In this document: positions 49,429-56,574 of the stretch, piece by piece
Layout of the letters: every line of letters starts with the position of its first letter
How positions within the stretch are numbered: position 1 is the stretch's first letter
Assembly: GCA_947564265.1 (NCBI GenBank)
Contig: CANOBK010000001.1
Location: forward strand, 62,001 to 126,000
DNA length: 64,000 bases
Direction of reading: 5' to 3'
From: an uncultured Caryophanales bacterium
Lineage (GTDB): Bacteria > Bacillota_I > Bacilli_A > RF39 > UBA660
Made by a program: the position numbers and the translations under genes
The notes under the pieces: model-generated
The model's database searches: none
What the model saw: the letters and a program-made list of their open reading frames with translations, nothing else
What the model was told of the DNA's origin: nothing

Positions 49429-49527
49429 TGTATCCACCTCTTTTACCATTATAATAGAAAAATCAAAAAAAGTAAAATTCTTTCATAAATTTAGGATTTT
49501 AGGCATAGAGTGGTGTAGGTGAATGAA

Positions 49528-50139
49528 ATGTTAAATTTAAAGAAAGACAAGCTGTTAAATCAAAAAATACTTTATTTAATTCTAGGAGTTGTAATACTAA
49601 TAGGAATTGGAACAGGACTTTTTTATCAGTTCTTTATTGGAAAAAACTTAAAGGCAGAAATCTTGGGTCAAATGAATGATTTCTTTACTTCTATTAAAAA
49701 CGGTTCTTTAGATTTTCAAGGGACTTTGGGAAATTCCTTATCTTCGAATGGTATTTCTTTACTTATTATCTGGATTTTAGGAATCTCAATTATTGGAATT
49801 CCCTTTATTTTAATTCATTTATTCTTTAAAGCTTTTGTACTTAGTTTTTCATTTATCTCAATTATCGCAAATTACCACTTTAAAGGACTTTTTCTAGCCC
49901 TAACGTATATTTTCCCTCATCAAATCTTAAATCTCGTTATATGGCTTCTACTTAGCTTCTATGCGGTAGGTTTTTCTATTAAATTAATTCGAGTTCTCTT
50001 TTTTAAGAAAAATATCAGTTTAAAAGAACATTTTAAAAAATATACCAAGATTTTATTTATCTGTTCTATCGCTTTAATTCTTACTTCTTTATTAGAAACT
50101 TATCTGTGTCCATGGTTATTAAAATTCTTTTTAAAATAA
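49528..50139 (+). CDS. spoIIM: stage II sporulation protein M
   Basis: A 203-residue membrane protein with five membrane segments. The core GISLLIIWILGISIIGIPFI and IHLFFKAFVLSF match Bacillus SpoIIM (LMWILGISVIGLPVI...). It forms the engulfment DMP machinery with SpoIID and SpoIIP in the mother cell. The start is ATG 49528, after AGGTGA (49517-49522); the GTG at 49519 is inside that site. A TCATAAAT / CATAGAGT pair (49483-49511, 13-nt gap) weakly resembles a sigma-E promoter. spoIID and spoIIP are not in the window. Confidence 0.85.
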   Translation: MLNLKKDKLLNQKILYLILGVVILIGIGTGLFYQFFIGKNLKAEILGQMNDFFTSIKNGSLDFQGTLGNSLSSNGISLLIIWILGISIIGIPFILIHLFFKAFVLSFSFISIIANYHFKGLFLALTYIFPHQILNLVIWLLLSFYAVGFSIKLIRVLFFKKNISLKEHFKKYTKILFICSIALILTSLLETYLCPWLLKFFLK

Positions 50140-50240: not shown

Positions 50241-51344
50241 ATGAATCCTAAAAAAATTGGGGCTTTTATTTGTGAATTACGTAAGTCAAAAAAATTAAGT
50301 CAGGGAGAACTTGCCCAAATGATTCCAATTTCACGTGAAGCGGTTTCCAAATGGGAACGTGGAATTTCTATTCCTAATTCAGAGACGTTGCTAATATTGA
50401 GTAATATTTTTGAGGTGTCAGTAAATAGTTTACTGGTAGGGGAATATACGAACAAAAATGAAAAAGAAAAGTTACAATCTCTTGCTTTAGAAATGTTAGA
50501 TGAAGATAATCGGAAAAAGAAAAAAATCCAGAATTTAAAAGTACTTATATTTTCACTTTTTCTTGTTTTTACCCTTATATTTCTTAGTTACTATTTTCTT
50601 AATACATATAATTCTATAAAAGTATATATGGTTAGTGGATCAGGGAACTCTTTTTCCATGACAGATGGAATTTTTGTTACTACGAAAGAAAAAATGTATT
50701 TTAGATTTGGGGATTTTGCCTTTTCTGATGAAACAGATATAAAGGGTATTGAAATGTATTATCAGAAAGATGGGAAAGAAAAGACGATTTTTTCAAGTGA
50801 TGGTTTCATCGGTATGATAAAAGATTATTATGGATATGATGCTTATTTTGAGTTAGAAGAATTAGATAATATTTTGAATAATGCTTATTTAAAAATTCAA
50901 TATTCGAACAGTCAGGAAATTATAAAATTAGAATTTACCAAAGACTTTGTCAATAATAAATTCCTGTTTTTTAAAAGGCCTAAAGCAAGTGCTGAGAAAA
51001 ATGATAATATTTCTAAAACTTCCAATGATATCATTGAAAAAATTTATAATAAGTTTGAGTGTGATCATGATGTGTGTACATTTCGAGTAGAGGAGGGAAA
51101 TAGAATTATAGAGTTCTCTTACTTTGATATAGGAAGGCACTTAAACATATCAGAAAAAAATGAGAATGAAACAATTGAATGGATTTACTATATAGATGGG
51201 AATCTTTTGTATTATAGATCCTATTTGGAGGAAAATTTAACTGATGAACATGAATTGCATCTAAATGGATTAACAACCACAGATTTAGATTATAAATATT
51301 TTAAAGAATTTCAAGATAAATATATTTTGAAATATTTATCTTAA
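50241..51344 (+). CDS. membrane-anchored XRE-family regulator
   Basis: A 367-residue protein with AGGAGTGG before ATG 50241. The XRE helix-turn-helix fills residues about 7-62 (ICELRKSKKLSQGELAQMIPISREAVSKWERG), followed by a charged linker, one membrane segment (about 101-120) and an extracytoplasmic C-terminal part of about 245 residues with a CDHDVC motif. This one-component layout would let an external signal act on DNA. It is directly upstream of the secreted-protein/ABC cassette and is a likely regulator of it. No ligand suggested by sequence. Confidence 0.8.
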   Translation: MNPKKIGAFICELRKSKKLSQGELAQMIPISREAVSKWERGISIPNSETLLILSNIFEVSVNSLLVGEYTNKNEKEKLQSLALEMLDEDNRKKKKIQNLKVLIFSLFLVFTLIFLSYYFLNTYNSIKVYMVSGSGNSFSMTDGIFVTTKEKMYFRFGDFAFSDETDIKGIEMYYQKDGKEKTIFSSDGFIGMIKDYYGYDAYFELEELDNILNNAYLKIQYSNSQEIIKLEFTKDFVNNKFLFFKRPKASAEKNDNISKTSNDIIEKIYNKFECDHDVCTFRVEEGNRIIEFSYFDIGRHLNISEKNENETIEWIYYIDGNLLYYRSYLEENLTDEHELHLNGLTTTDLDYKYFKEFQDKYILKYLS

Positions 51345-51363
51345 TCTATATCTTTTTTATTGT

Positions 51364-51396
51364 AGAGGGTGTACTTAAATAGTACACTTTTTTTTG
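51364..51396 (+). terminator. terminator after the XRE regulator
   Basis: GGTGTACT-TAAAT-AGTACACT then TTTTTTTT. Confidence 0.85.
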
Positions 51397-51400
51397 GGAT

Positions 51401-51415
51401 GGACTTAACAAGTCC
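51401..51415. promoter_or_regulatory. candidate operator in the leader of the secreted-protein gene
   Basis: Perfect palindrome GGACTT-AAC-AAGTCC, 52 nt before ATG 51467 and after the regulator's terminator. A possible binding site for the XRE regulator. Confidence 0.4.
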
Positions 51416-51466
51416 TACCAAAAATTTCCAATTTGTATTATTGTTAAGAAAAGGAGGGAAGTTTAA

Positions 51467-52195
51467 ATGAAAAAGATTAGTATATTTACACTAGGAATTG
51501 CACTACTATTAGGTATTTCAACTTATGATGTTTATGCAAGTGAAAATTACTATACCAATCCGTTTGGTGTTTCACTAACAAAAGAGGAATATGAGTTTTT
51601 AACTATGATGTATTGGGATGGATATCAATCATTGATGACTGTATCAGATTATCAAGAATTTCAAGATTCCAAAGTTATGGATGGAGAGATTGATTTTAAG
51701 GAAATTAAATCTGATGAAGAACCAATGACAAGAGCTACTTCATTTACTGGTGGATCTAGAACATTGAAAATCTTCAAGTCTTGTTCTTCTGATTGTACGA
51801 TTTCTGTAACTCTTACCTGGGATAGTCAACCTACTATCAGAAGCTACGATGTTATTGGATCATACTTTGACGGTACAACCTTAAAAAATACACCAAGTAC
51901 AGTTATTGTTACTTCTGGAGTATCACAGACAGTCAATGATTTAAAGACGGCAAATAATGGAATTGGTAGTTCTCTTATCATACCTTTTGGTGCTAATGTA
52001 GTTGTTAATCAAAATTACAGAGTAGCCAAACAAGGTCATGTTTATGCAAGCTATCAACATGCTACTATTGCTACAACACTAGCTAAGAGTAAAGATTATA
52101 CTTTTTCAAAAACTGGATATGGAAAAGTATTTAACTTTAGTGCAGGATCTCGTAATATCTATGATGGAATGAACGGCGTAGATATTGCGCTATAA
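51467..52195 (+). CDS. secreted protein, unknown
   Basis: A 242-residue protein with AGGAGGGAAG before ATG 51467. Signal peptide MKKISIFTLGIALLLGI... cleaved near VYA-SEN (about residue 25). The mature N-terminus carries an acidic region with YYTNPFGVSLTKEEYEFLTMMYWDGYQSL; after PMTRATSF comes a beta-sandwich-like part with SCSSDC, WDSQPTIRSYDVIGSYF and a Gly/Ser-rich C-terminus. Similar Cys-pair beta proteins occur in other Firmicutes without known role. The RATS break may be a processing site. It is the first gene of the secreted/ABC cassette. Confidence 0.65.
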   Translation: MKKISIFTLGIALLLGISTYDVYASENYYTNPFGVSLTKEEYEFLTMMYWDGYQSLMTVSDYQEFQDSKVMDGEIDFKEIKSDEEPMTRATSFTGGSRTLKIFKSCSSDCTISVTLTWDSQPTIRSYDVIGSYFDGTTLKNTPSTVIVTSGVSQTVNDLKTANNGIGSSLIIPFGANVVVNQNYRVAKQGHVYASYQHATIATTLAKSKDYTFSKTGYGKVFNFSAGSRNIYDGMNGVDIAL

Positions 52196-52213
52196 AAAAT
52201 TATTAATTTTTGT

Positions 52214-52263
52214 AACAACACAATTTTTGTAAAATACAGCTGGTTTGTAAGATTGTGTTTGTT
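52214..52263 (+). repeat. inverted repeat between the two secreted-protein genes
   Basis: AACAACACAAT (52214-52224) and ATTGTGTTTGTT (52252-52263), 11-12 bp arms with one bulge. Without a T-run, so an RNA stabiliser or partial attenuator is more likely than a strong terminator. Confidence 0.5.
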
Positions 52264-52291
52264 ATAAATAGAAAAGAAAAGGAGTAAAAAT

Positions 52292-52705
52292 ATGAAGAAA
52301 AAAATTATGTTAGCCATGGTATTTTGTATGCTATTGCTTGTAGGATCAACAAGTGTTTTTGCCATTCAATTTGGTACAGACTCTTATACAGTTCCAAATT
52401 GGGGAGGTTCTCACACGGGAATTGTTTATGTAGAGTGTGATGGCGGATTTGAAAGAAAATCAAGCTTTAACGTTACTTATAGTAATACTGCACTAAATAA
52501 AAGAGTTGCTCTAGCATCAGGTGAAACACAAATTAGTAAATGGATAGATGCTACACCACATCAATGGCTTTATCCAGTGAATGAATCTGCTGTCTATGAG
52601 GGCAGAAAATATAACTCCAAAGCAAAAAGCCACAATATGGAACCTACCAATAATACAAAAATAACTTATCAATTTAGTCCAGATTATTTACCATTTTGGC
52701 AATAA
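52292..52705 (+). CDS. small secreted protein, unknown (bacteriocin-like in size and context)
   Basis: A 137-residue protein with AAAGGAGTAA before ATG 52292. Signal peptide MKKKIMLAMVFCMLLLVGSTS... cleaved near VFA-IQF (about residue 25). The mature part of about 113 residues is beta-rich, with QFGTDSYTVPNWGGSHTG, only one Cys, and a C-terminal AKSHNMEPTNNTKITYQFSPDY. The Trp/Gly/Asn/Tyr-rich beta pattern recalls small exported proteins of the DUF2712/lactococcin-972 kind found next to ABC permeases, a resemblance in style only. The end overlaps the next gene. Confidence 0.6.
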   Translation: MKKKIMLAMVFCMLLLVGSTSVFAIQFGTDSYTVPNWGGSHTGIVYVECDGGFERKSSFNVTYSNTALNKRVALASGETQISKWIDATPHQWLYPVNESAVYEGRKYNSKAKSHNMEPTNNTKITYQFSPDYLPFWQ

Positions 52706-53532
52706 CAATTAATAGAAAAAAATTTGGGTTTATGCTAGTTGCTACTTTCATAGTAGTAGCTAGCTTTACCTGTTATTGTTGCTCAAGTGAATTTATTACA
52801 GCATATGAAAATAAGGAAGCTGGACTAGAAGTGTTTTATTATTTAGAAGATGTTGGAGGATCATTACCAAACTATATTTTTATAACTTTTATGGCTGCTA
52901 ATATATTCACAATTGACTTGTTTAAATCAAGAAAAAGTAAAATGAAAAATATGGAAATTGAAAGATTAGGATACAAGAAAGTATTTATTCAAAATATAAA
53001 GAGTATTGTAATAAGTTCTGCTATTTTTCGGATTGTTTGTTTTATAGCAATGATTTTAACTATTTCTGTAATATGTCATGGATTCCATTTTGATTTACCA
53101 AAAGAAACACAATTTTTATATCAGGATTTATATTTATATTCAAATAACCCAATGATTAGCTTTTTAATGTATATCTTTCTATCAATTGTTGGATATTCCA
53201 TGTTTTGTCTACTGATATACATTGTAGGATATTTTGTAAAAAATGAGTATCTTTATCGTTGCTTAGGTGTGATTTTAGGAATTGTTGGACAAGTAGGTCT
53301 TGCAATGCTGACTGCTATATTTGGAACTAATGGATCTGTCGGATTTGATTATTTAGTAATTAATACAATGTTTGTGGGAAATTTACTATGCCCTAATATA
53401 TGTAAAATAGGATACAAGCCACCAGAGATTAGTTTTTATATTCCAGTGATTTTAGCGCTTATTTTCTTTGGATGGGTTATTTTTAAGTCACTAAAATATA
53501 TTTATAAAAAAGAATATAGAGAAGGAAGCTGA
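52696..53532 (+). CDS. ABC permease-like membrane protein (first of three)
   Basis: About 278 residues if TTG 52696 is used. This start overlaps the upstream stop (TTGGCAATAA), with no clear ribosome-binding site, suggesting coupled translation. The next ATG (52732) would remove the basic INRKKF ahead of the first helix and is less likely. Six membrane segments; the second loop is basic (RKSKMKNMEIERLGYKK) as in small ABC-2-type permeases. CCC near residue 27 (CYCC). No family recognised with confidence. Confidence 0.6.
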   Translation: MAITINRKKFGFMLVATFIVVASFTCYCCSSEFITAYENKEAGLEVFYYLEDVGGSLPNYIFITFMAANIFTIDLFKSRKSKMKNMEIERLGYKKVFIQNIKSIVISSAIFRIVCFIAMILTISVICHGFHFDLPKETQFLYQDLYLYSNNPMISFLMYIFLSIVGYSMFCLLIYIVGYFVKNEYLYRCLGVILGIVGQVGLAMLTAIFGTNGSVGFDYLVINTMFVGNLLCPNICKIGYKPPEISFYIPVILALIFFGWVIFKSLKYIYKKEYREGS

Positions 53533-53537
53533 TATAA

Positions 53538-54065
53538 ATGGGGGTACTCTTTAGAAAAAGTATTGAGAAAAAGCAAATTTTGATTTTATTCATTTGCCTT
53601 TTACTTTTTCCTTCTATGATTCAAGATAAAGAAGATACCAACTTGCTTTTTATATTATTTTCATCCAATTATATTGCACTCATATTAGATACGATATATA
53701 TTTGGATTCTCTTTACTAGAATTTCAAAAATAAACTCTGTTTTTGATAAGATAATTACTAGATATACAAAAGATGAATTTCTAAAAAAATATATCCTATA
53801 TGCTATATTATCTAGCGTGATATATCTATTAATACTATACTTATCAATTTATGGTATAGTTGGATTAGATAAAATCTATTATTCTAGAGTAATTGCGTAT
53901 TTTATTATACAGACCATCTACTTTGTATTTATAGAATTATTTTGTATGCTAAGTTTCGGGAATCATCAAAAAGATGGCAAAATGGTATTACCAGTTTTAA
54001 TCAATTTAGTTTATCACTATGTTTTTGTACTTGAAATTTTAGTAAAGATATTTATAGGAGGTTAG
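53538..54065 (+). CDS. small ABC permease-like membrane protein (second)
   Basis: A 175-residue protein, start ATG 53538 five nt after the previous stop, with GAAGGAAG upstream. Four to five membrane segments, basic at the first (MGVLFRKSIEKKQ) and between the second and third. No recognisable family. Position between the first permease and the ATPase says it belongs to the same transporter. Confidence 0.6.
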   Translation: MGVLFRKSIEKKQILILFICLLLFPSMIQDKEDTNLLFILFSSNYIALILDTIYIWILFTRISKINSVFDKIITRYTKDEFLKKYILYAILSSVIYLLILYLSIYGIVGLDKIYYSRVIAYFIIQTIYFVFIELFCMLSFGNHQKDGKMVLPVLINLVYHYVFVLEILVKIFIGG

Positions 54066-54066
54066 G

Positions 54067-54684
54067 ATGTTAGAACTTAAAAATATTAGTAAAAAGTTTA
54101 AGAACAATTTATTATATGAGGATGTAAATTTTGAAATTAGAGATGGAGAATTAATTCATCTATTTGGAAAAAATGGAAGTGGGAAGTCCACTTTGTTTAT
54201 GATTATTTGTGATATTTTAGAACCAACTACAGGCGAAATTTCAAGAGAAGAAAATGTTAAGATAGGTGCAGTTATTGGAAATAGTGGATTTATTGAAAAT
54301 GAAACAATTTTGTATAATTTAAAGTATTTATATAATTTAAAAGGAACATTTGATGAAGAAAAAGTTAAAAGTTTATGTGAAATGTTTTCCTTAGATTTAT
54401 ATAACAAAAAAAAATTAAGTACTTATTCTGTTGGTATGCGACAAAAAGTAGCAATTATTCAAGCTATTATGGAAGATCAAAACCTAATTTTATTTGATGA
54501 ACCTACAAGAGGATTAGATGTAGATGCAATTGATGTATTTTTCAAATTAATAAAGAAATTAAAAAAAGAAGGAAAAACTGTTGTTATAGCATCTCATGAT
54601 TTATATGATAAGCTTGATTATGATTATCATTTACTAATTAAAAATGAAAGAATAGTGAAAAGTAAAAAATATGAAAAAGTATAA
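54067..54684 (+). CDS. ABC transporter ATP-binding protein
   Basis: A 205-residue nucleotide-binding domain with AGGAGG before ATG 54067. Walker A GKNGSGKST (residues about 35-43), ABC signature YSVGMRQ, Walker B LILFDEP, D-loop RGLD and H-loop ASHD. It is single-domain and short at the C-terminus. The closest known style is the ABC-2 group that exports or protects against small peptides. It begins one nt after the second permease gene and overlaps the third membrane gene by 14 nt. Confidence 0.93.
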   Translation: MLELKNISKKFKNNLLYEDVNFEIRDGELIHLFGKNGSGKSTLFMIICDILEPTTGEISREENVKIGAVIGNSGFIENETILYNLKYLYNLKGTFDEEKVKSLCEMFSLDLYNKKKLSTYSVGMRQKVAIIQAIMEDQNLILFDEPTRGLDVDAIDVFFKLIKKLKKEGKTVVIASHDLYDKLDYDYHLLIKNERIVKSKKYEKV

Positions 54685-55141
54685 AGAAATTCTAATTCTA
54701 ATCGTAATGCAGATTTCAGTCTACCAGTTTGTAGGAAATGCAGAAATACTTTTGAATATCAAGTATTTTACAATGGACCGTGTTATTTATATAATGATTT
54801 CTATTTTGTTTAATTATTTATACTTGTATTATTTTATAGAACAATATTATACATATATTTTAAACCGTAATCATGTAATTACACGTTGTGGTATGAAGGA
54901 GTATTATAAACTTGTATTGAAAAAAGTATTAGGCACGATTGGAATTTTCTTTATATCTAATTTGATTCTAGATTATATTATCGTCAAAAAAGTAATATTT
55001 AGTTATCTGATAATTAACACGTTGTATTTTTTAATTTTGATTATAGTTCTTCCTAAAAAAAGAGAATATTCATTTGAACTTTCCATTTCACTATTGGTGA
55101 CTCTTATAACCAAATATCTTTATTATATTTTTGTTTTATAA
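54671..55141 (+). CDS. membrane protein (third permease-like subunit)
   Basis: A 156-residue protein starting inside the end of the ATPase gene (AAAAATATG, coupled translation). Four to five membrane segments, with a basic start (MKKYKE) and a basic loop RNHVITRCGMKEYYK. No family recognised. With the other two membrane proteins it could complete a heteromeric membrane part for one ATPase. Confidence 0.55.
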   Translation: MKKYKEILILIVMQISVYQFVGNAEILLNIKYFTMDRVIYIMISILFNYLYLYYFIEQYYTYILNRNHVITRCGMKEYYKLVLKKVLGTIGIFFISNLILDYIIVKKVIFSYLIINTLYFLILIIVLPKKREYSFELSISLLVTLITKYLYYIFVL

Positions 55142-55177
55142 ATTATGTAATAAAAGAATATGATATCTCAAAATAAA

Positions 55178-55228
55178 AGAGGGACAAATTTTATGTTATT
55201 AAATATGCGTAAAATTTGTTCTTTATTT
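55178..55228 (+). terminator. terminator closing the ABC cassette
   Basis: AAAGAGGGACAAATTTTA and TAAAATTTGTTCTTT form an extended hairpin with TATTTT after it. Confidence 0.8.
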
Positions 55229-55265
55229 TCTGGTAATTTTGACATTAAAATGAAAGGAGAAAAAT

Positions 55266-55418
55266 ATGAATTTAAGAGTAAAAAGATTGGGTATGATTTC
55301 AATTAGTGAATATGATTATATATTTCCCAATCCTAATCAAAGTAATCGATTAAAAATAAAAGAATTTAAAGAAAAGAAAAAACATATATGTGATTATACT
55401 TATAAAGAATGTATTTAA
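55266..55418 (+). CDS. 50-residue basic protein, unknown
   Basis: ATG 55266 follows AAAGGAGAAAA and ends at TAA 55416-55418, giving a 50-residue basic protein. It starts MNLRVKRLGMISISEYDY, then IFPNPNQSNRLK, a lysine-rich run and two Cys near the C-terminus. No signal or membrane segment. It is too short for most gene finders; the strong ribosome-binding site is the main support. Confidence 0.5.
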   Translation: MNLRVKRLGMISISEYDYIFPNPNQSNRLKIKEFKEKKKHICDYTYKECI

Positions 55419-55467
55419 TTTATAGACTTTATTCATGAAATTTGATAAGATAATAGCGGTGAAATTT

Positions 55468-56574
55468 ATGAAAAAAGTAGTAATTGGGATGAGTGGTGGA
55501 GTGGATAGTAGTGTGGCTGCTATTCTATTAAAAGAGCAGGGATATGAGGTTATCGGTTTATTCATGAGAAACTGGGATACCTCTATTAATGGTGATATCT
55601 TAGGAAATCCTAATTTAGAAGATAATATTTGTCCTCAGGAACAAGATTATAATGATGCATTAGAGGTTTGTAAAAAATTAGAAATTCCACTTCATCGAAT
55701 TGATTTTGTGAAAGAATATTGGGATAATGTCTTTGAATACTTTTTAAGTGAGCTAAAGAAGGGAAGAACTCCTAACCCAGATATTATGTGTAATAAGTAT
55801 ATTAAATTTGATTATTTTATCAAAGAAGCAAAACGCTTAGGAGCTGATTATATTGCGACGGGACATTATGCTAGAATTAAAGATGGACAGTTATTAAGAG
55901 CAGTTGATACAAATAAAGATCAAACCTATTTCTTGTCTCAGTTATCGAAAGAGCAACTAGAAAATGTATTATTTCCTATTGGTGAACTAACGAAACCTAT
56001 GGTACGAGAAATTGCGGAGAAGTATGGCTTGATTACTGCAAAAAAGAAAGATTCTACGGGAATTTGTTTTATTGGAGAAAGAAACTTTCGAAACTTCTTA
56101 AAGAATTATTTACCAAATCAACCTGGCGATATTGTAAATATTGAAACAGAGAAAGTAGTAGGAAAGCATATCGGGCTCATGTATTATACGATTGGTCAGA
56201 GAAGGGGATTAGATGTTGGTGGTACAGAGGAAAGAATGTTTGTGGTAGGAAAAAATTTAGAGAAAAATGTTTTGTATATCGCAATTGGAGATAAAACTGA
56301 TTATTTGTTATCAGATAGTTGCCTAATCGATACCGTTAATTTTAATACAGAGAATCGTCCTACACATTGTACAGCAAAATTTAGGTATCGAGCAGAAGAC
56401 TATCCAGTCGATTTGGAGTACTTAGAAAATGGGGAAATTCTAGTAAAATATGACCATATCAAGTCTGTAACACCTGGACAAGCCTGTGTCTTTTATGATG
56501 GAGAACAGTGCCTTGGAGGTGGAATTATTAAGACAGTATGTAAAGATGGAAAAAAAGTTTGGTATATATTGTAA
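55468..56574 (+). CDS. mnmA: tRNA-specific 2-thiouridylase
   Basis: A 368-residue protein. The start is ATG 55468 after GCGGTGA (MKKVVIGMSGGVDSS); an upstream in-frame ATG at 55435 has no site. PP-loop SGGVDSS, catalytic Cys108 in NPDIMCNKY and Cys200 in STGICFIGERNF, then the C-terminal beta domain. It thiolates U34 of tRNA-Lys, -Glu and -Gln. In the window no cysteine desulfurase accompanies it. Confidence 0.95.
   Translation: MKKVVIGMSGGVDSSVAAILLKEQGYEVIGLFMRNWDTSINGDILGNPNLEDNICPQEQDYNDALEVCKKLEIPLHRIDFVKEYWDNVFEYFLSELKKGRTPNPDIMCNKYIKFDYFIKEAKRLGADYIATGHYARIKDGQLLRAVDTNKDQTYFLSQLSKEQLENVLFPIGELTKPMVREIAEKYGLITAKKKDSTGICFIGERNFRNFLKNYLPNQPGDIVNIETEKVVGKHIGLMYYTIGQRRGLDVGGTEERMFVVGKNLEKNVLYIAIGDKTDYLLSDSCLIDTVNFNTENRPTHCTAKFRYRAEDYPVDLEYLENGEILVKYDHIKSVTPGQACVFYDGEQCLGGGIIKTVCKDGKKVWYIL

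What the first reader, a model, noticed from the sequence alone, without database searches (positions are those of the whole stretch)
50241..55141. Regulator-secreted-protein-ABC cassette of unknown function
Seen: a membrane-anchored XRE regulator, two exported proteins (242 and 137 residues), three unrelated small polytopic proteins and one ABC ATPase, with overlapping or nearly overlapping starts from 52292 to 55141 and a closing terminator. A palindrome (GGACTT-AAC-AAGTCC, 51401-51415) sits between the regulator and the first secreted gene. Known: ABC-2-type units of one ATPase plus several tiny permeases beside small exported proteins occur as bacteriocin or self-protection cassettes in Firmicutes. 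Inferred: the regulator senses an outside signal and turns on the two secreted proteins and a transporter that exports or defends against one of them. I cannot name the family of either secreted protein.
Basis: partly seen in the sequence, partly recalled or inferred. Interest (0 to 1): 0.7.

Follow-up and report, generated by a model that had tools for sequence, protein, structure and literature searches.

The report
Swappable secreted-protein and transporter gene island
An uncultured relative of Bacilli carries a small inserted gene block made of two separable parts: a membrane-anchored regulator with a secreted protein of unknown fold, and a second secreted protein with its own membrane transporter; related genomes pair the same regulator part with other transporters, which suggests an interchangeable export or antagonism kit.

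Summary
Module A: the XRE-TM regulator (REG) plus the 242-aa exported protein (SEC242); REG lies directly before SEC242 in 53 of 65 distinct SEC242 genes, full-length SEC242 seen only in the window's family. Module B: SEC137-MP278-MP175-ABC-MP156, a cassette seen in 19 loci of several Bacilli groups, 18 of them without SEC242. But REG-SEC242 is repeatedly followed by other [small exported protein + ABC] cassettes: 9 of 65 against 4 of 552 control genes, those 4 lying in the same clusters, scattered over the SEC242 tree. The window block is an insertion of about 5.3 kb between spoIIM and mnmA, absent there in 6 of 6 same-genus genomes. Best reading: a regulatory head with swappable cargo; here the cargo is a Sec-exported small beta protein with a LanFEG-like ABC, perhaps antagonist plus self-protection. 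Function is inferred. SEC242, SEC137 and the three permeases reach no Pfam or NCBIfam cut-off.

The parts
50241..51344 (+). REG: XRE helix-turn-helix regulator with one TM segment and an outside C-terminal domain (module A)
   Evidence: HTH_3 E 8.2e-13, above cut-off; TM from residue 95; a PDB profile search matched only HTH parts; directly before SEC242 in 53 of 65
51369..51395 (+). terminator-like hairpin with T8 tail after REG
   Evidence: read from the sequence; fold -10.1 kcal/mol for 51366-51400; terminator-like hairpin at this position in 40 of 53 relatives, shuffled mean 15.7, maximum 22
51401..51415 (.). palindrome GGACTT-AAC-AAGTCC, candidate operator of SEC242; could also be a hairpin relic
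   Evidence: 3 places in the genome, each at a SEC242 copy, control 0; ACTT-N1-4-AAGT in 5 of 53 relatives' gaps, shuffled mean 0.58, maximum 2
51436..51441 (+). possible -10 hexamer TATTAT of SEC242 without a good -35
   Evidence: read by eye from the sequence; not listed by the promoter scan
51467..52195 (+). SEC242: exported protein; invariant W118, P122, S126, D128, SYQHA 195-199 (module A)
   Evidence: profile A6 of 25 sequences; 61 of 193 genomes of the order sample; no Pfam, PHROG or PDB relative
52196..52291 (+). intergenic hairpin and probable promoter/RBS before SEC137
   Evidence: -16.3 kcal/mol for 52200-52291; shared, 86% over 52038-52300, with the SEC242 relic on contig C7
52292..52705 (+). 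SEC137: small exported beta protein, first gene of module B
   Evidence: model with 8 strands, mean pLDDT 65.8; profile finds it before the ABC genes in other Bacilli
52696..53532 (+). MP278 polytopic permease-like protein
   Evidence: 31% identity to the relative in L071/L058; 3 strong hits in 386 family genomes
53538..54065 (+). MP175 polytopic permease-like protein
   Evidence: 37% identity to the relative in L058
54067..54684 (+). ABC ATPase
   Evidence: ABC_tran E 9.9e-26; best NCBIfam TIGR03740, 123 bits against cut-off 309.75; 60% identity to L058
54671..55141 (+). MP156 polytopic permease-like protein
   Evidence: 35% identity to the relative in L058
55183..55229 (+). closing terminator-like hairpin
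   Evidence: -20.0 kcal/mol for 55150-55235

Best explanation
A gene island of about 5.3 kb with a regulatory head and a cargo. Shown: REG and SEC242 form a recurrent pair (head); SEC137-MP278-MP175-ABC-MP156 is a separate cassette (cargo) found in other Bacilli without the head; the two lie here inside one insertion between spoIIM and mnmA; other heads carry other [small exported + ABC] cargoes. Inferred: the outside domain of REG senses a signal and its HTH controls the SEC242 promoter, perhaps through the palindrome, and perhaps the cargo. SEC242 and SEC137 leave by Sec. SEC137 acts outside as a small beta-sandwich antagonist or surface factor, and the ABC complex (one ATPase, three tiny permeases, no peptidase domain) clears it, or what it disturbs, from the producer's own membrane in the manner of LanFEG. 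SEC242 would be the constant partner of REG: the sensed or sensing outside component, or a first effector.
For: Pairing 53 of 65. Cassette order in 19 loci, SEC137 directly upstream in 12 and divergent in 1; the SEC137 family recovered with a profile that left out the rows first picked by eye (L192 only at E 0.045). Head plus cargo 9 of 65 against 4 of 552, Fisher p 4.8e-7, the 4 being genes just before REG of the same clusters. The next gene after SEC242 is exported in 20 of 41 against 88 of 479 (p 2.7e-5; this includes the small cargo proteins, so it is not independent). Cargo is scattered on the SEC242 tree: 9 changes for 9 rows of type T3. Insertion: spoIIM and mnmA adjacent in 6 of 6 same-genus genomes. 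A REG-SEC242 relic on C7 is followed by a different exported gene. REG-like proteins also lie directly before T3-type ABC or permease genes without SEC242 in L255, L262 and L269, and one gene away in L254. ATPase nearest to LanF-, PmtC- and Lcn972-type ATPases.
Against: No function is shown. SEC137 stands alone without ABC genes in 4 of the 12 genomes hit (L186, L187, L188, L191), odd for a toxin that needs this immunity. Six of 19 cassettes lack SEC137. Most REG-SEC242 pairs have no ABC downstream. T1 cassettes elsewhere lack the head (18 of 19). A T3 permease search found hits in 30 of 193 family genomes and only 4 places (in G021, G062, G086, G163) lie at SEC242 heads. Head and cargo may be separately transcribed: terminator-like hairpin after REG, hairpin before SEC137.
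Confidence: 0.45

Rival explanations
1. Chance neighbours: REG-SEC242 is a stand-alone regulator-secreted pair (for example surface or adhesion protein under its own sensor) and a mobile ABC cassette landed beside it; the two do not work together.
For: Both modules exist alone: 18 of 19 cassettes without the head, most heads without ABC. Terminator-like hairpin and own leader regions between units. Both sit in an inserted, variable locus.
Against: Recurrent head-plus-cargo association in several genera; exported genes enriched downstream.
Confidence: 0.3
2. The ABC unit is an envelope-stress or drug-efflux pump, and SEC137 is its outside accessory or sensor rather than a toxin; SEC242 is another stress-induced surface protein.
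For: Sec export means SEC137 does not need the ABC unit to leave; ATPase hits include drug and lantibiotic protection families; SEC137 also exists alone.
Against: No lipid anchor or membrane segment in mature SEC137 to hold it at a pump (read from the sequence); strong sequence divergence of SEC137 among relatives (13-30% identity in A7) looks more like a diversifying effector.
Confidence: 0.2
3. The palindrome 51401-51415 is not an operator but part of the hairpin tract that ends REG transcription.
For: 40 of 53 relatives have a terminator-like hairpin in this gap; the palindrome folds with its flanks (-13.2 kcal/mol).
Against: Here a separate hairpin with T8 lies just upstream; the palindrome has no T-run after it and its centre lies 28 bases before the possible -10; it is kept in the C7 relic.
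Confidence: 0.4

Closest known systems
Lantibiotic self-protection ABC transporters (LanFEG; TIGR03740 ATPase)
   Same: Best NCBIfam hit of the ATPase (1.4e-35); one ATPase with small polytopic partners beside a small exported product
   Different: 123 bits against a cut-off of 309.75; three partners, no lanthionine-type precursor or modifying enzyme seen among the ORFs of 48.5-57.5 kb; SEC137 has a Sec-type start
Lactococcin 972-type bacteriocin with its ABC (TIGR03608)
   Same: Small Sec-exported, unmodified protein with an ABC; Lcn972 is a 91-aa prepeptide with a 25-aa Sec signal (passages of PMC7248182) that binds lipid II (passages of PMC8538875)
   Different: No Pfam match of SEC137 even at E 1; ATPase 116 bits against 254.85; permeases not matched
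DUF2712 (PF10916) small exported proteins beside three membrane genes and an ATPase
   Same: Same length and gene position in L083, L087, L091; MP278 resembles their first permease (hhalign probability 95.9); two of them give weak PF10916 matches
   Different: Window SEC137 has no PF10916 match, hhalign finds no likeness of the small proteins, and their ATPase comes last. No paper of the library names DUF2712 or DUF2705
T3 cassettes of the same family: small exported protein, LolD-like ATPase, two FtsX-like permeases
   Same: Stand directly behind REG-SEC242 in the same slot (L031, L053, L199, L201, L209, L211, L215)
   Different: No likeness of the small proteins to SEC137; ATPase of LolD/MacB type, below cut-offs; one FtsX-like half near cut-off (24.4 against 25.5 bits)

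Membership tests
LanFEG (TIGR03740) | ATPase above the curated cut-off | tested here: not met
   123 bits, cut-off 309.75
LanFEG (TIGR03740) | lantibiotic precursor and modifying genes nearby | tested here: not met
   none recognised among the ORFs and family hits of this block; small precursors under 40 aa were not sought
Lactococcin 972 system | structural protein in the Pfam family; ATPase above TIGR03608 cut-off | tested here: not met
   no Pfam family at E up to 1 for SEC137; 116.3 bits, cut-off 254.85
Lactococcin 972 system | binds lipid II, blocks septum formation | not testable with these tools
   needs protein
DUF2712 (PF10916) | match to the Pfam model | tested here: not met
   no match at E up to 1 for window SEC137; 0.013 and 0.062 for L091 and L083
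XRE/Cro-C1 HTH regulators | HTH_3 above gathering score | tested here: met
   48.6 bits, cut-off 23
ABC transporter ATPases | Walker A, signature, Walker B, H-loop | tested here: met
ABC-2-type permeases | match of the three membrane proteins to a permease family | tested here: not met
   no permease family for the three; no fold was run for them
Anti-phage defence systems (PADLOC) | system-specific proteins | tested here: not met
   only generic HTH and ATPase domain hits; none for SEC242, SEC137 or the permeases

The most novel reading that the evidence does not exclude
A new kind of modular antagonism or surface-remodelling system: a mobile head, the membrane-anchored XRE regulator REG plus the constant outside protein SEC242, into whose slot non-homologous [small Sec-exported protein + self-protection ABC] cassettes are swapped, comparable in logic to polymorphic toxin loci but built from secreted beta proteins and transporters.
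Probability: 0.3. Interest if true: 0.72.

Novelty: new variant of a known kind. Interest (0 to 1): 0.48.

Why it matters
If the head-and-cargo reading holds, it gives a handle for finding many uncharacterised secreted-protein/ABC pairs in small-genome uncultured gut Bacilli: search behind REG-SEC242. It also separates two things that a single-genome reading merges, and it shows a family of small exported proteins (SEC137) with a conserved cassette in cultivable hosts (Lactobacillus hominis, Erysipelothrix inopinata), where function can be tested.

Tried and rejected
One conserved seven-gene operon: rejected, since neither module needs the other in most relatives. Phage or plasmid origin of SEC242: no match in phages and no confirmed viral contig; no PHROG for SEC242, SEC137, MP278 or MP156. 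Defence system: rejected. Known bacteriocin family: no cut-off met. SEC137 as DUF2712: rejected on sequence, open on fold. Insertion marked by repeats: longest word shared by the two junctions is 11 bases, AT-rich; no base-composition break (GC 22-34% of the genes against 30.6% of the window).

Folds: SEC137 gave a modest model (mean pLDDT 65.8); Foldseek against PDB gave no match at E <= 0.001 (best 1.4e-3, TM 0.43; assorted beta-sandwich folds), so only 'beta-rich, probably a sandwich' is claimed. SEC242, from one sequence, gave mean pLDDT 36.8 and was not used. No fold of the permeases was run. Literature: searches for DUF2712, DUF2705, and mixed terms on XRE, bacteriocin and Erysipelotrichaceae gave nothing on this cassette; the library lacks most subscription papers.

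Weak points: gene calling in relatives was a simple script, not a trained gene finder; export and TM calls rest on hydropathy; the loci of the control set are centred on SEC242; the tree is a quick one with 20 of 48 inner branches open. SEC137 rows L072, L077 and L079 entered the alignment by eye; a profile without them finds them at 2e-13, 4.6e-14 and 2.1e-8, but L192 only at 0.045.
Full report
Observation. The seven ORFs, their close packing from 52292 on, the palindrome and the closing hairpin are real. The regulator has an HTH_3 domain (E 8.2e-13) and one hydrophobic segment; the ATPase has all motifs. SEC242, SEC137 and the three membrane proteins reach no Pfam or NCBIfam cut-off, and SEC242 has no relative in PHROGs, the phage records or, as a 25-row profile, the PDB.

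Module A. SEC242 relatives were found in 42 of 193 genomes of the window's family with the single sequence and, with a profile, in 61 of 193 genomes of the order sample. In a class sample 20 of 395 genomes were hit, 16 of them in the family; the other 4 match only the first 67-102 positions. In 65 distinct SEC242 genes of the fetched loci (window not included) the directly upstream gene on the same strand is REG in 53; 6 more are second tandem copies; 1 lies at a contig edge; 5 have something else. Invariant SEC242 positions include W118, P122, S126, D128 and SYQHA 195-199. Between REG and SEC242 a terminator-like hairpin is found in 40 of 53 (shuffled mean 15.7, maximum 22), so the two are probably separate transcripts.

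Module B. The five-gene order was first found in one other family genome (G187, L058 = L071). SEC137 is directly upstream in 12 (window, L071, L072, L077, L079, L080, L081, L184, L185, L189, L190, L192), divergent beside it in 1 (L075) and absent in 6 (L070, L073, L074, L076, L078, L195). L078 and L195 lack MP175. SEC137 without ABC genes is seen in L186, L187, L188 and L191. A Melissococcus plutonius plasmid carries SEC137 and the ATPase with small genes between. No SEC242 hit lies in any locus of L067-L153 except the window's own, nor in L184-L195 as printed.

Association. Nine of 65 SEC242 genes, against 4 of 552 other genes of at least 150 aa in the same loci, are followed by a small exported protein and an ABC ATPase (Fisher p 4.8e-7); the four control genes (L046_13, L053_10, L201_11, L211_13) are the genes next before REG in the same clusters. 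By a rule of five genes downstream, 11 of 53 pairs have an ABC-type ATPase against 2 of 53 upstream of REG; one of the 11 (L044) looks like UvrA (recognised from recall), and L039, whose cassette lies 520 bases on, is missed by the rule. Cargo types: T3, small exported protein + LolD-like ATPase + two FtsX-like permeases (L031, L039, L053, L199, L201, L209, L211, L215; L045 without the small protein); T2, small protein + three permeases + ATPase (L213, ATPase in two pieces at a contig end); L046, two small exported proteins + two large ABC half-transporters; T1, the window. The small proteins of T2 and T3 show no likeness to SEC137 by hhalign. On a quick SEC242 tree of 51 rows T3 needs 9 changes for 9 rows (4 forced by starred branches; shuffles as low in 500 of 500), that is, it is not clustered. 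The T3 permease itself occurs in 30 of 193 family genomes; 4 of its places (G021, G062, G086, G163) are at SEC242 heads, so T3 cassettes also mostly live without the head. REG-like proteins lie directly before T3-type ABC or permease genes in L255, L262 and L269, and one gene away in L254, which ties REG to ABC cassettes even without SEC242. The gene after SEC242 is exported in 20 of 41 cases against 88 of 479.

Origin of the block. spoIIM and mnmA, which flank the block, adjoin each other in 6 of 6 same-genus genomes examined; homology stops near 50.1 kb and resumes near 55.45 kb. The genome also holds a broken REG-SEC242 copy on contig C7: REG HTH (31.9 bits) and the SEC242 C-terminus (33.8 bits) with stops. 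DNA likeness to the window runs from 51388 (just before the palindrome) through the SEC242 ends to 52300, the next start codon; there the next gene is a VanY-like exported protein instead of SEC137 (naming from recall of the sequence type). So a block from palindrome to next start codon has moved as a piece in front of different exported genes.

Mechanism. SEC137 has a Sec-type start, and the ATPase lacks a peptidase domain, so the ABC unit is not needed to cross the membrane; I take it as self-protection or clearance, LanFEG-like in action but not a member (123 bits against 309.75). The SEC137 model is beta-rich (8 strands, pLDDT 65.8) without a firm PDB match. REG probably controls the SEC242 promoter, perhaps through the palindrome, whose centre lies 28 bases before a possible -10 (51436-51441, read by eye; not in the promoter scan). 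Whether REG controls the cargo is open.

Against it: SEC137 alone in 4 genomes, cassettes without SEC137, most heads without ABC, no expression or activity data. Confidence is about 0.75 that two separable modules are joined here, about 0.5 for a working head-cargo link, about 0.35 for antagonism with self-protection; 0.45 is given for the whole.

Noticed in passing
G000:C7 about 89.4-90.3 kb (L027 8950-9790): Broken REG-SEC242 copy with two GGACTTNNNAAGTCC palindromes, followed by a VanY-like exported gene that starts where SEC137 starts in the window.
   Followed up: partly
L254, L255, L262, L269: REG-like XRE proteins directly before (in L254 one gene before) LolD-like ABC or FtsX-like permease genes without SEC242.
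   Followed up: partly
L186, L187, L188, L191: SEC137 relatives as single genes, without ABC neighbours, in four genomes of one family (f13) with closely alike C-terminal motifs.
   Followed up: no
G525, G584, G532, G694: Only the first 67-102 positions of SEC242 match proteins of 227-465 aa open frame in other families: the N-terminal part may be a domain of its own.
   Followed up: no
window 55160-55460: About 300 bases between MP156 and mnmA hold two short overlapping ORFs (48 and 50 aa) and lie inside the insertion; mnmA's likely native start is the ATG at 55469, not 55435.
   Followed up: partly
window 52200-52291: Long-armed hairpin (-16.3 kcal/mol) without a T-run between SEC242 and SEC137.
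   Followed up: no
L196 5013-5669: In same-genus genome G736 the SEC242 gene is followed by a degenerate ABC ATPase-like ORF without a clear Walker A.
   Followed up: no
L153 (NZ_AP018525.1): SEC137 and its ATPase on a Melissococcus plutonius plasmid, annotated as hypothetical protein and ABC ATPase.
   Followed up: partly
window 49519-50139: A stage II sporulation protein M gene, above its NCBIfam cut-off, in a 1.68-Mb genome.
   Followed up: no
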